Source: Sneathiella aquimaris
Lineage (GTDB): Bacteria > Pseudomonadota > Alphaproteobacteria > Sneathiellales > Sneathiellaceae
Direction of reading: 5' to 3'
Assembly (NCBI RefSeq): GCF_026409565.1
Contig: NZ_CP112881.1
Coordinates: 2,279,501 to 2,343,500, forward strand
DNA length: 64,000 nucleotides
Both the position numbers and the translations under genes were made by a program. Of this stretch, positions 51,568 to 58,875 are shown piece by piece. Positions within the stretch are counted from its first letter, which is position 1. The number at the start of each line of letters is the position of its first letter. A model generated the notes under the pieces. The model had not been told where the DNA came from. It did not search any database and was given only the letters and a program-made list of their open reading frames with translations.

Positions 51568-52728
51568 ATGACCCCATTTACATTTAACACCACACCGCAG
51601 CTGATTTGTAATCCTGGCGCCATGTCAGGCTTGGGTGAGCTCGTGAAATCCAGCATTGGAAACCATATCCTGATCGTAACCGATCCGGGGATTGTTAAAT
51701 ATGGCCTCCTCGAAACAGCTTTGAAAAGCTTAAAAGCAGCAGACATTCAGGTTTCCATCTTTGAGGATGTTGAGGCGGACCCAAAAGAAAGCATTATCCT
51801 CGCTGCGACAAAAATCGCCTTGGAGCGCAAGGTAGATGCGATCATTGGCTTGGGCGGCGGCTCATCCATGGATGTCGCCAAGCTGGTTGCCCTGCTGGCA
51901 AAGGGAGATGAACAACTCGGTGATGTTTACGGGATCGATATGATTAAGGGAAATCGTTTGCCACTTGTTCTGATACCGACGACCGCCGGAACCGGTTCTG
52001 AAGTAACACCCATTTCTATTGTAACTGTCGGTGCAGAAACCAAAAAAGGTGTGGTTTCCCGCAAACTGTTGCCAGACATAGCCATATTGGACGCTGATCT
52101 GACCTTGGGGTTGCCGCCGCATGTGACAGCCGCTACCGGGATCGATGCAATGGTACACGCCATCGAAGCCTTTACCTCTCGCGGTGCGAACAATAACCCT
52201 CTTTCGGCAACATTAGGAAAAGAAGCCCTCAGACTTCTAGGTGCCAATATCCGAACAGCCGTCAAAGAAGGTCAAAACCGCGAAGCCCGCTCAAACATGT
52301 TGTTAGGTGCCTGCCTTGCCGGACAGGCATTCGCCAATTCACCTGTCGCTGCTGTTCATGCTCTTGCCTATCCGATCGGTGGAATTTTCCATGTTCCCCA
52401 TGGACTTTCGAACGCGCTGGTTCTTCCGGAAGTAATGCGGTTCAATGCACCGGAATGTGGGGAAGATTATGCGGCTCTGGCGCCGTTGGTTTTTCCGGAT
52501 ATCGACCAGACAGGCGGTTCACAAAAAATATGTCAGGACTTCATTGACCGCCTTGCTGACCTGTCGCGGGAACTTGGGCTCGAAACTACTTTGCGCGAAG
52601 TCGGCATTCAAGAACAGGACCTTGTTAAACTGGCGGATGCGGCGATGGAGCAAACACGACTTCTGGTCAATAATCCACGGCCCGTCACGCATCAGGATGC
52701 CCTGACCATCTATCAGAAAGCGCTTTAA
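51568..52728 (+). CDS. Iron-containing alcohol dehydrogenase
   Basis: A 386-residue group III dehydrogenase. NAD-binding GLGGGSSMDVAKLVA, PTTAGTGSEVTPI, iron ligands in ATGIDAMVHAIEAF (Asp and His), then AVHALAYPIGGIFHVPHGLSNALVLPEVMRFN (two His). Length matches the 380-390 norm. It reduces or oxidises a small aldehyde or alcohol in the cytoplasm. The next gene starts three bases later, so it is co-transcribed with a thioesterase. Confidence 0.93.
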   Translation: MTPFTFNTTPQLICNPGAMSGLGELVKSSIGNHILIVTDPGIVKYGLLETALKSLKAADIQVSIFEDVEADPKESIILAATKIALERKVDAIIGLGGGSSMDVAKLVALLAKGDEQLGDVYGIDMIKGNRLPLVLIPTTAGTGSEVTPISIVTVGAETKKGVVSRKLLPDIAILDADLTLGLPPHVTAATGIDAMVHAIEAFTSRGANNNPLSATLGKEALRLLGANIRTAVKEGQNREARSNMLLGACLAGQAFANSPVAAVHALAYPIGGIFHVPHGLSNALVLPEVMRFNAPECGEDYAALAPLVFPDIDQTGGSQKICQDFIDRLADLSRELGLETTLREVGIQEQDLVKLADAAMEQTRLLVNNPRPVTHQDALTIYQKAL

Positions 52729-52731
52729 TTT

Positions 52732-53169
52732 ATGAACGCCAGAAAAGATCTGAGTTCCCGCAGGGATTATCCGCATTTCCTGACCATCCCAACACGCTGG
52801 ATGGATAATGACGCCTATGGACATGTGAATAATGTTCAGTATTACAGTTACTTCGATACCGCCGTGAACCAGTTTCTTGTGGTAAACGGTGCGCTGGATA
52901 TTCAAAAAAGTACAGTGATTGGTCTTGTTGTCGAAACACAGTGTCGTTACTCGAAAAGCATCGTCTTCCCCGATATTGTGACAGCGGGCGTCCGAGTCGC
53001 CCATATGGGAAATAGTTCCGTACGATACGAAATCGCCTTATTCAGGGATAAGGAACAGGAAGCCGCCGCTGAAGGTCACTTTATCCACGTATATGTGGAC
53101 CGAATAACCAACCGCCCTGTTCCCTTACCTCAATTTATGAGAGATATCCTCAAAACCATTGCTGTTTAA
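52732..53169 (+). CDS. Hotdog thioesterase (4-hydroxybenzoyl-CoA thioesterase-like)
   Basis: 145 residues, one hotdog domain with the catalytic motif DNDAYGHVNNVQYYSYFD (Asp in the D-x-x-G-H-V-N-N pattern). The 4HBT family hydrolyses acyl- or aroyl-CoA; substrate unknown. Three-base gap after the iron alcohol dehydrogenase suggests the two act on one pathway. Confidence 0.87.
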   Translation: MNARKDLSSRRDYPHFLTIPTRWMDNDAYGHVNNVQYYSYFDTAVNQFLVVNGALDIQKSTVIGLVVETQCRYSKSIVFPDIVTAGVRVAHMGNSSVRYEIALFRDKEQEAAAEGHFIHVYVDRITNRPVPLPQFMRDILKTIAV

Positions 53170-53181
53170 TCAGGCATATCT

Positions 53182-53964
53182 TTATATTTTAGAAAAATCC
53201 CCGCTTCGCCCTAATCCTGAGGCGAAGCGCGCCGCCCCTGTTTGTGCTTCCTGTTTCAAGGCTTTTTCGCCCTCCACTCCTTCAAGACGAAGGGCGTCTT
53301 CCACACTCATCCCCCATTGCCGGTAAGACGTCAACCGGTCCCCCTGCAAACAGGTTTGCGGGAACGAACATAATTGTTCCGCCAATTTAACCGCTTCCGT
53401 ATAAGCCTCTCCTTCCGCCGCCAGACGGTTCGCCAGGCCCATCCGTTCAGCTTCGCCTGCGTCCACTTCACGCCCGGTCAAAATCATATCAAGCGCCCTG
53501 CTATGGCCAATCAATCGAGGTAAACGAACGGTACCGCCATCAATTAACGGAACGCCCCAGCGACGGCAGAAAACGCCGAAACGGGCGGCTTCAGCAACCA
53601 CTCTCAGATCACACCACAGCGCAAGTTCGAGCCCTCCCGCGACGGCATATCCCTCTATCGCAGCGATAACGGGTTTACTGAGAAGTCTGCGTGTCGGCCC
53701 CATCACCCCATCACCCTCCGGTTCGTAAGAAAGCTCACTTGAAGACAGGGATTTCAAATCAAACCCGGCACAGAAATATTTTCCCGCTCCCCGCAGGATT
53801 GCAACCGATTGGCTATCGTCGGCATCGAAATTATCAAAAGCCTCAAGCAAAAGCTGTCCCGTGCGATAATCCACTGCGTTACGCCGTTCTGGCCGATTTA
53901 TTGTTACTGTGGTGATGGCACCCTTTTTTTCAACCAAAACGGTTTCGTTTTCTTGTGCTGGCAT
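53182..53964 (-). CDS. Enoyl-CoA hydratase/isomerase family protein
   Basis: 260 residues from ATG 53964 (AGGAAG upstream); an in-frame start at 54033 has no site. Crotonase pattern: INRPERRNAVDYRTGQ, oxyanion loop KYFCAGFDLKSL, AIEGYAVAGGLELALWCDLRV and WGVPLIDGGTVRLPRLIG. The position usually holding a catalytic Glu reads as Val/Pro-Leu-Ile-Asp, so hydratase activity is uncertain and isomerase or lyase activity is possible. It lies on the minus strand after the DUF3299 gene but with a 74-base gap. Confidence 0.86.
   Translation of the reverse strand: MPAQENETVLVEKKGAITTVTINRPERRNAVDYRTGQLLLEAFDNFDADDSQSVAILRGAGKYFCAGFDLKSLSSSELSYEPEGDGVMGPTRRLLSKPVIAAIEGYAVAGGLELALWCDLRVVAEAARFGVFCRRWGVPLIDGGTVRLPRLIGHSRALDMILTGREVDAGEAERMGLANRLAAEGEAYTEAVKLAEQLCSFPQTCLQGDRLTSYRQWGMSVEDALRLEGVEGEKALKQEAQTGAARFASGLGRSGDFSKI
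53202..53229 (-). terminator. Hairpin inside the 3' end of the enoyl-CoA hydratase gene
   Basis: CGCTTCGCC (53202-53210) and GGCGAAGCG (53221-53229) form a perfect nine-pair stem in the last codons; on the minus strand it is followed by GGGGATTTTTC. It may be the transcript end overlapping the coding region, or simply codon-encoded symmetry. Confidence 0.4.
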
Positions 53965-54038
53965 GGCGGCTTCCTGATTTTTTGTAAGTTTCGTTGCCCA
54001 GAGGATACCCCGAAGCCGAAAACCGTCAACCATACAAC

Positions 54039-54560
54039 TTACAGCGTTGTCGCGTTTTCCAGAAAATAGAAGACACCGGTTTCCTGTTCATATCGCACAG
54101 ATAACGTGCCACGGATTGTAATCGGGTCGAAGGAGAAAGCGATGCCCTTTGGCGCGATCACTTCAATCACATTTTCGGGGCCGATATGATAATGATACGG
54201 ACAGCTTAATGGATACGGTCCGATTAAAAAATTCTTCTGTTCTGCTGTTTGCTCCAAGGGAAACATATATCCCATGATTGTAACCGTGGTTCCATCCAGA
54301 TTTCTAACATCATCGCCATAAACTGGTTTTAAGTAACAGGTATCATATCCGTCTTTTTCGGTCTTGCAGACTTCAAAGGATTTTGTCGCTGCAAAGATCG
54401 TCCAGGGAACTGCATCCCCCGTTACCGCAAGCGGTTTCCAGTTTTGTTCAAAATCCAACCGTTCCTGCTCGGTCAGTTCCTGTTCACTTAAGGCTTGAAC
54501 CTGCAACGAACCGGCAAATGAAAACATCAGGATCAGGCTCAAATAGAAAAATTGCTTCAC
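54039..54560 (-). CDS. DUF3299 periplasmic protein of the zinc locus
   Basis: 173 residues from GTG 54560, which overlaps the permease stop as GTGA. Signal peptide (MKQFFYLSLILMFSFAGSL, cleavage near residue 23). DUF3299 pattern: GTTVTIMGYMFPLEQTAEQKNFLIGPY, then SCPYHYHIGPENVIEV, where the usual Cys/His cluster is Cys-x2-His-x-His and may bind metal. Last gene of the ZnuA-like/ATPase/permease operon. DUF3299 proteins recur beside LolD/FtsX-like zinc-linked ABC genes; biochemical role unknown. Confidence 0.82.
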   Translation of the reverse strand: MKQFFYLSLILMFSFAGSLQVQALSEQELTEQERLDFEQNWKPLAVTGDAVPWTIFAATKSFEVCKTEKDGYDTCYLKPVYGDDVRNLDGTTVTIMGYMFPLEQTAEQKNFLIGPYPLSCPYHYHIGPENVIEVIAPKGIAFSFDPITIRGTLSVRYEQETGVFYFLENATTL

Positions 54561-55744
54561 ACCTGCCCCCCCATCAAGGAATGCCGAATGTCGATTTTAT
54601 AGGCCCTATAGGCCGGCACAAGGCAGATAAGCGCTGATATAACCACAACACTTCCCCATAAATAGAAAAGCTCTGCCTTGTGAAGGAGGGTTTCAACATT
54701 CAGTCCCTCTCCTTTCAGAAATACAGTTACCAAAATTTCAAAACCTACCAGCCCGCCAATACCCCCTAGGATACTACCAATAACGGCAATAAAAAGACCC
54801 TGCATCAAAACAATGGCAAAAATTTTGGAAGGCCGCGCCCCCAGAACACGATAAAGAGCCAAGTCGTATTTACGCTGCTGGATCGCGGACAATAGTCCAA
54901 CAAAAACACCGCCCAGTGACAATAACAGCAACCCTCCTCCGATCCAATTCAACACCGTTTGACCGATACCGATCATGGATGAAAGTCGTGTCATCGCCAA
55001 GGAGGGACTAACCGCCTGGAACGGTGTTTGGGTATTAATTTGACGCGGCAAACCATAGGCAGCCGCCCGGGTTCGATAAAAGACCAGCAAGGCTGTGATC
55101 TCTGGCTTGGATGCCGTACCCTCCGATTGGTGAATATCCAGCACCGATTGCACGGGTGTTACAATCAAACGGTCAATGATACGGCCTGTTGGCTTTAAAA
55201 TTCCAACCACACGATACGGGTGGTCGTCATGACGATGCGCGCCTTTCTGCCCGACAAGACCATGGTTCCCCGAAAAGGCAGAGCCTATGACCATCCCCGT
55301 TTCTTGCGCTACGGTAGAACCAAGAACCACCTGCATCGGATTTTGCCATATGCCGCCGTTTGCAAATTCAGATTCAAAATATTCCAGATATTCTGAGCTG
55401 GTGCCGACGATCCGCCGCCCCCTATATTGATCCCCAAGTGCGAGCGGAATGACTTTCCTGACATGTCGGTTCTGCTTTATCGCCATAGCCCGTTTATAAT
55501 CGATATTTCCAGGGGGAATATCCAGATGATAAATTGACGACAGGACCAGCTGTAACGGACTTCCTTTAGCACCAACCACAAGGTCAATTTCGGCGGCTTC
55601 GTTGAGAAAGCGATGCTGCAAGTAGTCAGAAAAAAGCAGCAATAAAGTAACCATCGCCATTCCAACAGCCATGGAAACGATATGAAGGGTTGTCGCGAAA
55701 GGCCTAAAGCGTAAATACTGCAAGCAAAGCGTTACAAGGGTCAT
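54557..55744 (-). CDS. FtsX/MacB-type ABC permease of the zinc locus
   Basis: 395 residues from ATG 55744, overlapping the ATPase stop as ATGA. One N-terminal transmembrane helix (about 17-40), a periplasmic domain of about 220 residues, then three C-terminal helices starting near IGGGLLLLSLGGVFVGLLSA: the FtsX/MacB/LolC arrangement, not the eight-helix ZnuB fold. The periplasmic domain carries HRHDDH at residues 170-175 in GQKGAHRHDDHPYRVVGIL, a possible metal site. It contains LYRVLGARPSKIFAIVLMQG, the conserved FtsX cytoplasmic loop. Confidence 0.88.
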   Translation of the reverse strand: MTLVTLCLQYLRFRPFATTLHIVSMAVGMAMVTLLLLFSDYLQHRFLNEAAEIDLVVGAKGSPLQLVLSSIYHLDIPPGNIDYKRAMAIKQNRHVRKVIPLALGDQYRGRRIVGTSSEYLEYFESEFANGGIWQNPMQVVLGSTVAQETGMVIGSAFSGNHGLVGQKGAHRHDDHPYRVVGILKPTGRIIDRLIVTPVQSVLDIHQSEGTASKPEITALLVFYRTRAAAYGLPRQINTQTPFQAVSPSLAMTRLSSMIGIGQTVLNWIGGGLLLLSLGGVFVGLLSAIQQRKYDLALYRVLGARPSKIFAIVLMQGLFIAVIGSILGGIGGLVGFEILVTVFLKGEGLNVETLLHKAELFYLWGSVVVISALICLVPAYRAYKIDIRHSLMGGQV

Positions 55745-56391
55745 GCTTTTTCCCAAATTTTTAGATCCAGTCGCTGATCATTTGGAAACATCGCTTTCAA
55801 GCGACTGTCATGGGTGACGATGATAAGGGACGCCCCAACTTTCTCCGCCTCTGCCTTCAGTAGATTGACAGAAAGATTTGCTGAATTATCGTCCAGCGCA
55901 GAAGTTGGCTCATCACACAAGATCCATTTAGGACGCCCGATAACGGCTCTGGCAATGGCAACCCTCTGACTTTCACCGCCGCTCAATATACTGGCTTTCT
56001 TTTGCAAGAGATGGCCTATTTCCAACCGTTCAAGCAACGAAATGATCGCTCCTTCTTCGGGCTCTCTGCCGCTCATCAAGCCAGGCAGCATCAAATTCTT
56101 TTCCACAGTCAGAAACGGAACCATGTGATGGGATTGGAACACAAACCCCATATTGGTTCCGCGAAACCTGTCCACCTCAGTGGCAGACAGGTGATGAAAA
56201 GGAACACCATTAAAATGAATAGTGCCTTCAGTGACCGGGATCAGCCCCGCCAAAAGTGACAAAAGCGTAGTTTTTCCAGAACCGGACGGCCCATGAACAA
56301 GCAGATGAGCTCCCGACTCCAAGGTGACATTCACATCCCTTAATATATGTTGATTATCAAAATGATAGAATACTTTGTTACATTCCAGCAT
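55741..56391 (-). CDS. LolD/MacB-type ABC ATPase of the zinc locus
   Basis: A 216-residue ATPase: Walker A GPSGSGKTT, Q-loop VFQSHHMVPFLTV, signature LSGGESQR, Walker B WILCDEPTSALD, H-loop IIVTHDSR. The MFQSH..P-type Q-loop and TSALD D-loop match LolD/MacB/FtsE ATPases rather than ZnuC. It starts three bases after the ZnuA-like stop and overlaps the permease gene, so the three parts are co-translated. Confidence 0.92.
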   Translation of the reverse strand: MLECNKVFYHFDNQHILRDVNVTLESGAHLLVHGPSGSGKTTLLSLLAGLIPVTEGTIHFNGVPFHHLSATEVDRFRGTNMGFVFQSHHMVPFLTVEKNLMLPGLMSGREPEEGAIISLLERLEIGHLLQKKASILSGGESQRVAIARAVIGRPKWILCDEPTSALDDNSANLSVNLLKAEAEKVGASLIIVTHDSRLKAMFPNDQRLDLKIWEKA

Positions 56392-56394
56392 AAT

Positions 56395-57540
<1,146 letters not shown>

Positions 57541-57561
57541 CACTTTACCTAAAAAATTTTG

Positions 57562-57579
57562 GTTATGTTATAATATAAC
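57562..57579. promoter_or_regulatory. Zur-type palindrome at the ZnuA operon promoter
   Basis: GTTATGTTATAATATAAC, symmetric about TTATAA with one mismatched pair. On the minus strand TTGACT, 16 bases, TAACAT can be read as -35/-10, with the palindrome over the -10. Family type assigned from resemblance to alphaproteobacterial Zur boxes. Confidence 0.75.
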
Positions 57580-57646
57580 TATTCCAAGTCAAGACTATTT
57601 AGCAACCTATTTCAAAGGGGTTCAGACCCATATTTTAAAAAAGGCG

Positions 57647-57676
57647 TTGACAAATTCGCCCATCTAGATTTGTTAT
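57647..57676 (+). promoter_or_regulatory. Promoter of the outer-membrane protein gene
   Basis: Consensus -35 TTGACA (57647-57652), 18-base spacer, -10-like TGTTAT (57671-57676), about 30 bases before the ATG at 57706. The downstream palindrome overlaps the -10, which suits repression. Confidence 0.65.
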
Positions 57677-57689
57677 GTTATAACATTTC
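57672..57689. promoter_or_regulatory. Zur-type palindrome at the outer-membrane protein promoter
   Basis: GTTATGTTATAACATTTC with the perfect core ATGTTATAACAT (57675-57686), overlapping the -10 box. Matches the other palindrome at 57562, so both divergent units probably answer to one zinc-sensing repressor. Confidence 0.75.
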
Positions 57690-57705
57690 ATAAAGTGGAC
57701 TCACA

Positions 57706-58875
57706 ATGCAACCTTTATCTTTTAAAATCTATTCGCTCGTCACTGCACTCAGTTTTCTCCCGGCTCTGGCTGTTGCCGGTGACGGACACGATCACGATCA
57801 CGGCAATGCCTCGTACTCCCCTCACGGTGCCGCTGGATTCTATGGACATCTGGATACCAAGATACACAGCGATGTTGTCTATAAAGCCGAAGAAAAAGAC
57901 GAGGAAATTTCAGAAACCTATAGCCATACTCATCTGGATTTGGGGTATGTTTTCTCTACCGGCCTCTCGCTCAACAGTGTTATCGAACTGGAAGGAGAGC
58001 CTGCGGGCCATGATCATGGCGGCGGCGGAAATGCAGCGGAAGGTAACAGTCGGTTTTTTGACGATCACACCCTCAAAATCAGAGATCTGAATATTCGCTA
58101 TGAAACCGACCATTTTGGGTTGTTGGCCGGTAAATTTTCTCCTGTGGTTGGTTTCGATTATCACCAGTTTCCGGGCATTTACGGATATCAGATTATTCAT
58201 GAATATGCGCTACGTGAGAAAATTGGGCTCGGTGCAAATCTCAAACTTGATGCGGGAGATTTCGGACGGCATAAACTCGAAGCCAGCAGCTTTTTTGCAG
58301 ATACAAGTTTCCTAAGTGGTGCGTTATTAAACCGCCAAGATCCGGTCGAAAAGCAAGATGGCGGTGTTTCAAATACAGAAGATCTGTCCTCGTTTGCAGT
58401 CTCATTAGGCGGGCAGGATTTCTATTCATTAAACAATAATATCGTACAGGGGCTATCCTATCGGATTGGTTTTGCTCATCAGGCCGCCGGTAAAAACAAT
58501 GAAGAGGATGAAAACCGGTATTCTGTTTCGTTGAACTACAAACACCGCTTTACCAAGGATTTCGAAGGCAGAATGATCGGGGAGATCATGCATATTCAGC
58601 ACTTGAACGGCGAAGCCGCCCACGATCGTACCTGGCATACAGCAGGTTTGGAAATCACCTACAAAAATTGGAATGTCGGCTCTACATGGAGCCATATCCG
58701 CAATGACAACCCTGTAGAAATCGACGAAGCCATTGACGGAGACATCGTACAAGCGTCGATCGGTTATGAATTCGATAGCGGGGTGTTTCTGGGAGTTGGT
58801 TACAAATATCAGGACGAAGAAAATGAAGAAAACCACCGGGTTGGTGCACTTGTAAGCTATTCACACCATTTCTAG
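57706..58875 (+). CDS. His-rich outer-membrane beta-barrel, probable zinc porin
   Basis: 389 residues with a signal peptide (cleavage near ALAVA/GDGH, around residue 24). The mature N-terminus is GDGHDHDHGN, with a second His-rich patch GHDHGGGGN (about 103-111). The rest alternates polar and aromatic residues as amphipathic strands (for example VQASIGYEFDSGVFLGVGYKYQ) and ends in Phe (VSYSHHF), the usual outer-membrane insertion signal. No TonB box or plug is seen, so it looks like a porin-type channel rather than a TonB receptor. Its promoter is covered by a Zur-type box and it faces the ZnuA-like operon. Confidence 0.82.
   Translation: MQPLSFKIYSLVTALSFLPALAVAGDGHDHDHGNASYSPHGAAGFYGHLDTKIHSDVVYKAEEKDEEISETYSHTHLDLGYVFSTGLSLNSVIELEGEPAGHDHGGGGNAAEGNSRFFDDHTLKIRDLNIRYETDHFGLLAGKFSPVVGFDYHQFPGIYGYQIIHEYALREKIGLGANLKLDAGDFGRHKLEASSFFADTSFLSGALLNRQDPVEKQDGGVSNTEDLSSFAVSLGGQDFYSLNNNIVQGLSYRIGFAHQAAGKNNEEDENRYSVSLNYKHRFTKDFEGRMIGEIMHIQHLNGEAAHDRTWHTAGLEITYKNWNVGSTWSHIRNDNPVEIDEAIDGDIVQASIGYEFDSGVFLGVGYKYQDEENEENHRVGALVSYSHHF

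What the first reader, a model, noticed from the sequence alone, without database searches (positions are those of the whole stretch)
54039..58875. A Zur-boxed zinc system with an FtsX/LolD-type ABC core instead of ZnuBC
Seen: a ZnuA-like binding protein, a LolD/MacB-type ATPase, an FtsX-fold permease and DUF3299 are chained by 3-base or overlapping junctions, and face a His-rich outer-membrane barrel; both promoters carry Zur-type palindromes. Known: ZnuA normally works with ZnuB, an eight-helix permease, and FtsX-type ABC systems usually move lipoproteins or exported molecules. From memory, Vibrio cholerae ZrgABCDE is a zinc-linked system with a similar LolD/FtsX/DUF3299 core but a different binding component. 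Inference: this locus is a ZrgBCD-like unit that has recruited a ZnuA-type protein and its own outer-membrane channel, giving a complete outer-to-inner route.
Basis: partly seen in the sequence, partly recalled or inferred. Interest (0 to 1): 0.82.

Follow-up and report, generated by a model that had tools for sequence, protein, structure and literature searches.

The report
Zinc locus with added ABC unit
A zinc-starvation locus in an alphaproteobacterium couples the only classical zinc-binding protein found in the genome to an unusual lever-type ABC unit, but the classical zinc pump is still encoded elsewhere, so the unit looks like an add-on rather than a replacement.

Summary
The anatomy is confirmed: ZnuA, a LolD-like ATPase, a MacB/FtsX permease and DUF3299 are tightly chained, facing a His-rich putative outer-membrane protein, with strong Zur-type boxes on both sides. 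"Instead of ZnuBC" is not supported: the one-contig genome holds a zur-znuC-znuB operon with its own box and no znuA beside it, and the window's ZnuA is the only ZnuA found. Within the genus, a single ZnuA on another contig than znuBC recurs without the LolD/FtsX/DUF3299 core, and one congener has ZnuA followed directly by the same hydratase. The core was most likely added behind a resident ZnuA that serves ZnuBC.

The core belongs to a clade apart from the ZrgA-linked type, found in several phyla, mostly with no ZnuA nearby, and in six class genomes with no ZnuA found. In another family it also follows a ZnuA, opposite zur-znuCB. Its permease has the MacB/LolCE fold and three periplasmic histidines present in 97 of 97 clade rows and 4 of 4 ZrgB-type rows. 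Best reading: a zinc-starvation lever ABC unit that assists zinc or metal-ligand handling in the envelope. New variant of a known kind; direction and substrate remain untested.

The parts
56395..57543 (-). ZnuA-type zinc-binding protein (382 aa; signal peptide by eye; His-rich loop 115-206; motifs around His59, His214, His278; C-terminal Cys pair); the only PF01297 protein found in the genome
56926..57201 (-). coding stretch of the His-rich loop of ZnuA (24 His of 92 residues); holds a 6-base tandem repeat at 56955-56987
55741..56391 (-). LolD/FtsE-like ABC ATPase (216 aa)
54557..55756 (-). FtsX/MacB-type permease (399 aa): four long helices read as membrane helices, domain about 55-250 between the first two, invariant His165, His176, His209
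54039..54560 (-). DUF3299 protein (173 aa; signal peptide by eye), Cys120 invariant; profile matches PDB 4hsp (PA4066)
57706..58875 (+). His-rich putative outer-membrane protein (389 aa), facing ZnuA in eight other genomes of the genus as well
   Evidence: barrel fold inferred, model failed
57562..57579 (.). Zur-type palindrome before znuA
57672..57689 (.). Zur-type palindrome before the facing gene
53182..54033 (-). enoyl-CoA hydratase family gene; directly follows znuA in congener G011 (marks the site without the core); not part of the zinc system

Best explanation
This is a Zur-controlled zinc-starvation locus (boxes shown, control inferred). ZnuA, the only ZnuA found in the genome, is inferred to deliver zinc to ZnuBC, encoded about 1.7 Mb away on the same contig behind its own Zur-type box. 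The LolD-like ATPase, FtsX/MacB-type permease and DUF3299 form a separate ABC unit of the lever (type VII, MacB/LolCDE) fold that was most likely added behind a resident znuA and is now co-expressed with it. Inferred mechanism: ATP hydrolysis moves the periplasmic domain of the permease, which carries invariant His165, His176 and His209, to load or release zinc (or a metal-ligand complex) in the envelope; the facing His-rich protein lets metal into the periplasm, and ZnuA carries zinc to ZnuBC. The core is not a substitute for ZnuB. Gene content, trees, the site without the core and the boxes are shown; the fold is predicted; zinc binding by the permease, direction and substrate are inferred.
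Against: The core occurs without any ZnuA found in six class genomes, five of which also show no ZnuB match, so it cannot depend on ZnuA everywhere and might import by itself. In V. cholerae, ZrgA is needed for growth in low zinc in a znuA mutant (PMC9820375), which favours direct uptake by the related unit. In P. aeruginosa the related PA4064-PA4065 was reported as a pyochelin-cobalt exporter (PMC11481552, passages). The test that keeps window and L060 ZnuAs apart is borderline (AU p 0.0497). G011 also lacks two further genes that the window has between hydratase and PAS gene, and loss in G011 instead of gain in the window is not excluded. G+C of the core (0.46-0.49) is like its surroundings, so composition gives no sign of recent import.
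Confidence: 0.6

Rival explanations
1. One reading: the LolD/FtsX/DUF3299 core is itself the inner-membrane importer fed by this ZnuA, replacing ZnuBC.
For: Tight operon; the same ZnuA-core order in another family (L060) and ZnuA directly after the core in a Geobacteraceae MAG (L135); core in genomes with no ZnuA and no ZnuB found; V. cholerae Zrg works without ZnuA (PMC9820375).
Against: znuBC is present and boxed, with no other ZnuA found; related ZnuAs serve genomes without the core; the core stands behind two different ZnuA lineages (borderline test); MacB/LolCE fold.
Confidence: 0.17
2. The core is an exporter of a metallophore or metal-ligand complex, induced under zinc starvation, as proposed for PA4064-PA4065.
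For: Fold of the MacB exporter family; report on P. aeruginosa (PMC11481552, passages).
Against: No MacA-like gene in the operon (the genome was not searched for MacA, TolC or metallophore genes). Relatives beside zur, a CobW-family gene, TonB receptors or ZnuA/ZnuB-type genes fit uptake, but do not exclude export.
Confidence: 0.15
3. The core is a hitchhiker that came under a Zur promoter by insertion but has no zinc role.
For: Patchy: found in 2 of 25 family genomes.
Against: Zinc-type neighbours in unrelated lineages: a Fur-family gene in 5 of 17 class core loci (L044, L170, L171, L174, L185; Pfam-checked in three), ZnuA in 5 of 80 named loci, Fur-CobW-DksA in Herminiimonas, an ABC-2 unit and TonB receptors in G266.
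Confidence: 0.08

Closest known systems
ZrgABCDE of Vibrio cholerae / V. parahaemolyticus (zinc-regulated ABC system)
   Same: ATPase + four-TM MacB-like permease + DUF3299 under Zur; the three permease histidines are also in the four ZrgB-type class relatives aligned here
   Different: No ZrgA (PF10986) found in the genome; ZnuA in first place; permease in a separate clade from four ZrgB-type rows (100/100)
PA4063-PA4066 of Pseudomonas aeruginosa
   Same: Split MacB-like ATPase and permease, and DUF3299 (4hsp, PA4066, is the only PDB match of our DUF3299 profile)
   Different: PA4063 is a ZrgA homologue, not ZnuA; its reported role is pyochelin-cobalt export
ZnuABC
   Same: Classical ZnuA; zur, znuC and znuB in the same genome with a matching box
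   Different: znuA is not beside znuBC and shares its operon with another ABC unit
LolCDE / MacB (type VII ABC, lever action)
   Different: 14-18% identity in those alignments, Zur-type boxes, invariant periplasmic histidines, DUF3299 partner
znuGHI of Caulobacter crescentus
   Same: Zur-regulated ABC unit that is not of ZnuB type, in an alphaproteobacterium (PMC4176598, passages)
   Different: ABC-2 type permeases; in G266 an ABC-2/DUF3526 unit lies beside a core of our type, so the two are different systems

Membership tests
ZrgABCDE | ZrgA (PF10986) as binding component | tested here: not met
   0 matches in the whole genome. None of the 14 control genomes rang in that search, but the family model does match proteins of class relatives L045 and L047 in hmmscan
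ZrgABCDE | ATPase + FtsX-type permease + DUF3299 in one operon | tested here: met
   (operon inferred from junctions)
ZrgABCDE | Permease in the ZrgB clade | tested here: not met
   Separate from 4 ZrgB-type rows, 100/100; ZrgA was shown beside two of the four; V. cholerae and P. aeruginosa sequences were not in the tree
ZrgABCDE | Zinc and Zur control | tested here: inconclusive
   Boxes found; binding and expression cannot be tested here
ZnuABC | Classical ZnuA binding protein | tested here: met
   PF01297 206 bits, cut-off 29; best PDB match 7rcj ZnuA, other ZnuA chains also; NCBIfam ZnuA 239.7 against cut-off 268, so below it
ZnuABC | ZnuB and ZnuC encoded in the genome | tested here: met
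   (NCBIfam ZnuB and ZnuC are the best matches, below their cut-offs; PF00950 over its cut-off)
ZnuABC | ZnuA physically works with ZnuBC | not testable with these tools
   inferred from gene content
Type VII ABC (MacB/LolCDE/FtsEX) | Four-TM permease with a large domain between TM1 and TM2, and a LolD-like ATPase | tested here: met
   model pLDDT 88, Foldseek and VIA-align matches; LolD and LolCE NCBIfam models below cut-offs
MacAB-TolC exporter | MacA adaptor in the operon | tested here: not met
   None of the seven genes scanned between 53182 and 59540; genome not searched for MacA

The most novel reading that the evidence does not exclude
The Zur-linked LolD/FtsX/DUF3299 clade is a zinc machine of its own: a lever-type ABC unit whose permease binds zinc by an invariant periplasmic histidine set and passes it on in the periplasm without moving it through a ZnuB-like channel. 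It needs no dedicated binding protein in many lineages, supports zinc supply in some genomes without ZnuA or ZnuB, and in this locus has been wired to ZnuA so that ATP-driven loading of ZnuA feeds ZnuBC.
Probability: 0.25. Interest if true: 0.78.

Novelty: new variant of a known kind. Interest (0 to 1): 0.5.

Why it matters
Vibrio studies read Zrg-type units as zinc importers, a Pseudomonas study reads one as a pyochelin-cobalt exporter, and the papers seen do not explain how a MacB/Lol-fold permease would import a metal ion. This locus offers a cleaner case: the unit sits behind the only ZnuA found in a genome that keeps znuBC, close relatives carry a related ZnuA without the unit, and other genomes carry the unit with no ZnuA or ZnuB found. 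The three invariant histidines give a direct point-mutation test.

Tried and rejected
Rejected: ZnuBC absent. Rejected: core conserved in the genus; DUF3299 was found in none of the 24 other genus and family genomes, the permease only in G004. Rejected: the fourth genome-wide box match (C1:2233447, 3 mismatches) as a Zur site; it lies inside a gene that looks like an AMP-binding enzyme by eye. The number of matches with up to 3 mismatches (4 per strand) is below that of the reversed control (8), so only the places of the 0- and 2-mismatch sites carry weight. Rejected: a link between core and presence of ZnuB; 303 of 385 class genomes have a PF00950 match, and by eye 11 of the 61 genomes lack one against 82 of 385 in all; no formal test was run. 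Rejected: Caulobacter znuGHI as the same system (passages, passages of a review).

Led nowhere: first genome-contig scan with the single permease; structure of the facing protein, not searched further; NCBIfam gave nothing for DUF3299 and the facing protein. ZIP (PF02535): 11 of 12 genomes without a match, one weak. A zur-profile hit in L181 (41 bits) was not confirmed by Pfam and is not counted. The zur profile was built from one sequence and misses others, e.g. the Fur-family gene of L069 found by Pfam.

Dropped rows: in the box training 3 of 25 upstream stretches (L033, L034, L036) gave no site; for L034 and L036 the frame starts far upstream, so the true promoter was not read. Some genomes give two of the 25. 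Both G004 loci and the window were left out on purpose. G004's other ZnuA (L013) was not in box training or tree. G008 also has ZnuA and ZnuB on different contigs, but its ZnuA lies at a contig end, so it is not counted as unlinked. One search was given 31 of the 61 genomes: the 29 with the highest scores, G033 and G046. Not all 31 were shown to hold the whole core; the six without ZnuA were.
Full report
Observation. The four minus-strand genes and the facing plus-strand gene are at the stated places with the stated families. From the coordinates, junctions are 3 bases, then overlaps of 16 (or 4) and 4 bases. The ATPase is nearest to LolD and the permease to LolC/E, both below the curated cut-offs. 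DUF3299 is a divergent member, 32 bits in Pfam; a profile of four such proteins matches one PDB sequence, 4hsp, which PMC8561739 names as PA4066 (passages). ZnuA is classical.

Zur boxes. A matrix trained on 22 sites from 25 ZnuA upstream stretches of other genomes of the family scores the window's two sites 30.2 and 26.1; the best separate site in 64 kb reaches 10.4. In shuffled stretches the best match of the starting pattern averaged 10.8 of 18 (95th percentile 13, maximum 14); 22 of 25 real ones had 15 or more. The starting pattern came from the window, so the test is not fully blind. Genome-wide, sites with 0 to 2 mismatches are the two in the window and one before zur-znuC-znuB, which scores 23.6. 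Counted with up to 3 mismatches the pattern is not above a reversed control, 4 against 8 per strand. Promoter-like sites are not clearly above shuffles.

ZnuBC is present. The genome is one contig of 3.94 Mb, given as 100% complete. PF00950 has one place, in a Zur-ZnuC-ZnuB operon. PF01297 occurs only in the window; its two rows are pieces of one protein. ZrgA is not found (no control genome rang in that search). In the family, 22 of 25 genomes have ZnuA and 23 of 25 a ZnuB-family match, one of them weak. In ten genomes one ZnuA faces zur-znuC (G001, G002, G003, G010, G013, G017, G019, G020, G021, G022), and in G024 of another genus. In eight genomes a ZnuA faces the same His-rich protein (G001, G004, G006, G007, G009, G013, G017, G022). 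In G009, 100% complete, that ZnuA is the only one found, and zur-znuC-znuB lies on another contig with no ZnuA beside it. So a ZnuA facing this protein, with znuBC elsewhere, exists without the core.

The core is probably an addition. The permease profile gives 629 bits in the window genome, 200 in G004 (cut by a contig end) and at most 53 in every other match of the 25 genomes. Congener G011 has ZnuA, enoyl-CoA hydratase (78% identity), PAS and MCP genes on one strand, in the order of the window, without the core. It also lacks the two opposite-strand genes that the window has between hydratase and PAS gene (51568-53169), and the facing protein, so the two loci differ by more than the core. 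G011's ZnuA is the next relative of the window/G004 pair (95/88). Gain in the window lineage is the simpler reading because only 2 of 25 genomes show the core; loss in G011 is possible. G+C gives no hint either way.

A second association. Its core is the closest found outside the genus (permease 51% identical; 100/99 with window and G004), but its ZnuA falls with the znuBC-linked ZnuAs, 95/96. Holding the three core-linked ZnuAs together costs 26.5 log units, AU p 0.0497, so a double attachment is likely, not proven. In a Geobacteraceae MAG a ZnuA-family gene follows DUF3299 on the same strand (L135); in two Rhodoferax loci and one Polaromonas locus a ZnuA/ZnuB-type cluster lies beside the core on the other strand (L113, L114, L128; L113 checked).

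The wider clade. Of 80 named loci, 76 have all three core genes together and 5 have ZnuA within the fetched stretch; no ZrgA-profile hit appeared in them. Other kinds of binding protein were not searched. In Herminiimonas the core follows Fur-family, CobW-family and DksA-type genes and precedes a TonB receptor (L069). Of 385 class genomes 61 have a DUF3299-type match. Of 31 of these tested, 25 have ZnuA; the six without are G032, G263, G343, G165 (all family f9), G266 and G389, and all six hold the core. Five of them are not among the PF00950 matches; G266 has a weak one, 2.7e-4. A Fur-family gene lies beside the core in three of the four f9 genomes and in G389. ZIP was not found in the six. 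G266 has an ABC-2/DUF3526 unit and TonB receptors at the same place, which resembles the reported Caulobacter znuGHI/znuK genes (PMC4176598, passages). Completeness of the f9 and G389 genomes is 89-93%, so absences there are not certain.

Relation to Zrg. The 41 permeases of this clade separate from four ZrgB-type permeases with 100/100. ZrgA stands beside two of the four. The core is related to the Zrg core and may work like it, but is not filed as ZrgABCDE here.

Literature. PMC9820375 (abstract, introduction and discussion read) reports that ZrgA of V. cholerae is needed for normal growth under zinc limitation in a znuA mutant; PMC9817125 (passages) reports zinc-starvation induction of zrgABCDE and a role of ZrgA in V. 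parahaemolyticus. PA4063-PA4066 is reported as an exporter unit for pyochelin-cobalt (PMC11481552, abstract and passages). Searches for zrgABCDE (6 papers), DUF3299 with zinc (2 papers), PA4063/PA4064/PA4065 (20 of 27 listed), Zur regulon with FtsX and ZnuA terms (20 of 270 listed), at least four of zinc, DUF3299, LolD, FtsX-like permease, ZnuA, Zur (3 papers), type VII ABC with mechanotransmission and zinc (8 papers) and ZrgB (2 papers) listed no paper whose title or abstract start describes a ZnuA-led LolD/FtsX/DUF3299 operon. Most of those papers were seen as listings only.

Verdict. Real and well framed anatomy; the replacement claim fails on genome content; what remains is a Zur-linked lever ABC clade attached to ZnuA, with a testable histidine set.

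Noticed in passing
L052 10146-11764 (G013); same order by length and first residues in L053-L056, not in L050: In other genomes of the genus the gene facing ZnuA is followed by a DUF1007 gene and a NicO nickel/cobalt-type transporter gene (Pfam checked in L052 only); the window has a TetR-type gene there.
   Followed up: partly
L069 2553-10561 (Herminiimonas contaminans): Compact zinc-type cluster: Fur-family regulator, CobW-family protein, DksA-type protein, LolD-FtsX-DUF3299, TonB receptor.
   Followed up: partly
L074 7871-8269; L139 4804-5175: MerC-family membrane proteins stand beside the LolD-FtsX-DUF3299 core in a Latescibacterota MAG and in Erythrobacter longus.
   Followed up: no
L233 5513-17218 (G266): An ABC-2/DUF3526 transporter and a TonB receptor beside the LolD-FtsX-DUF3299 core and a second TonB receptor, in a genome with no ZnuA found.
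   Followed up: partly
L044 7280-8686 (G032): This f9 permease (468 aa) has a long His-rich insert just after the position of His209; the other three f9 permeases are similarly long, 468-473 aa.
   Followed up: no
window 56955-56987: Perfect 6-base tandem repeat (CGTGTT, 5.5 copies) codes the Glu-His run of the ZnuA loop; loop length could vary there between strains.
   Followed up: no
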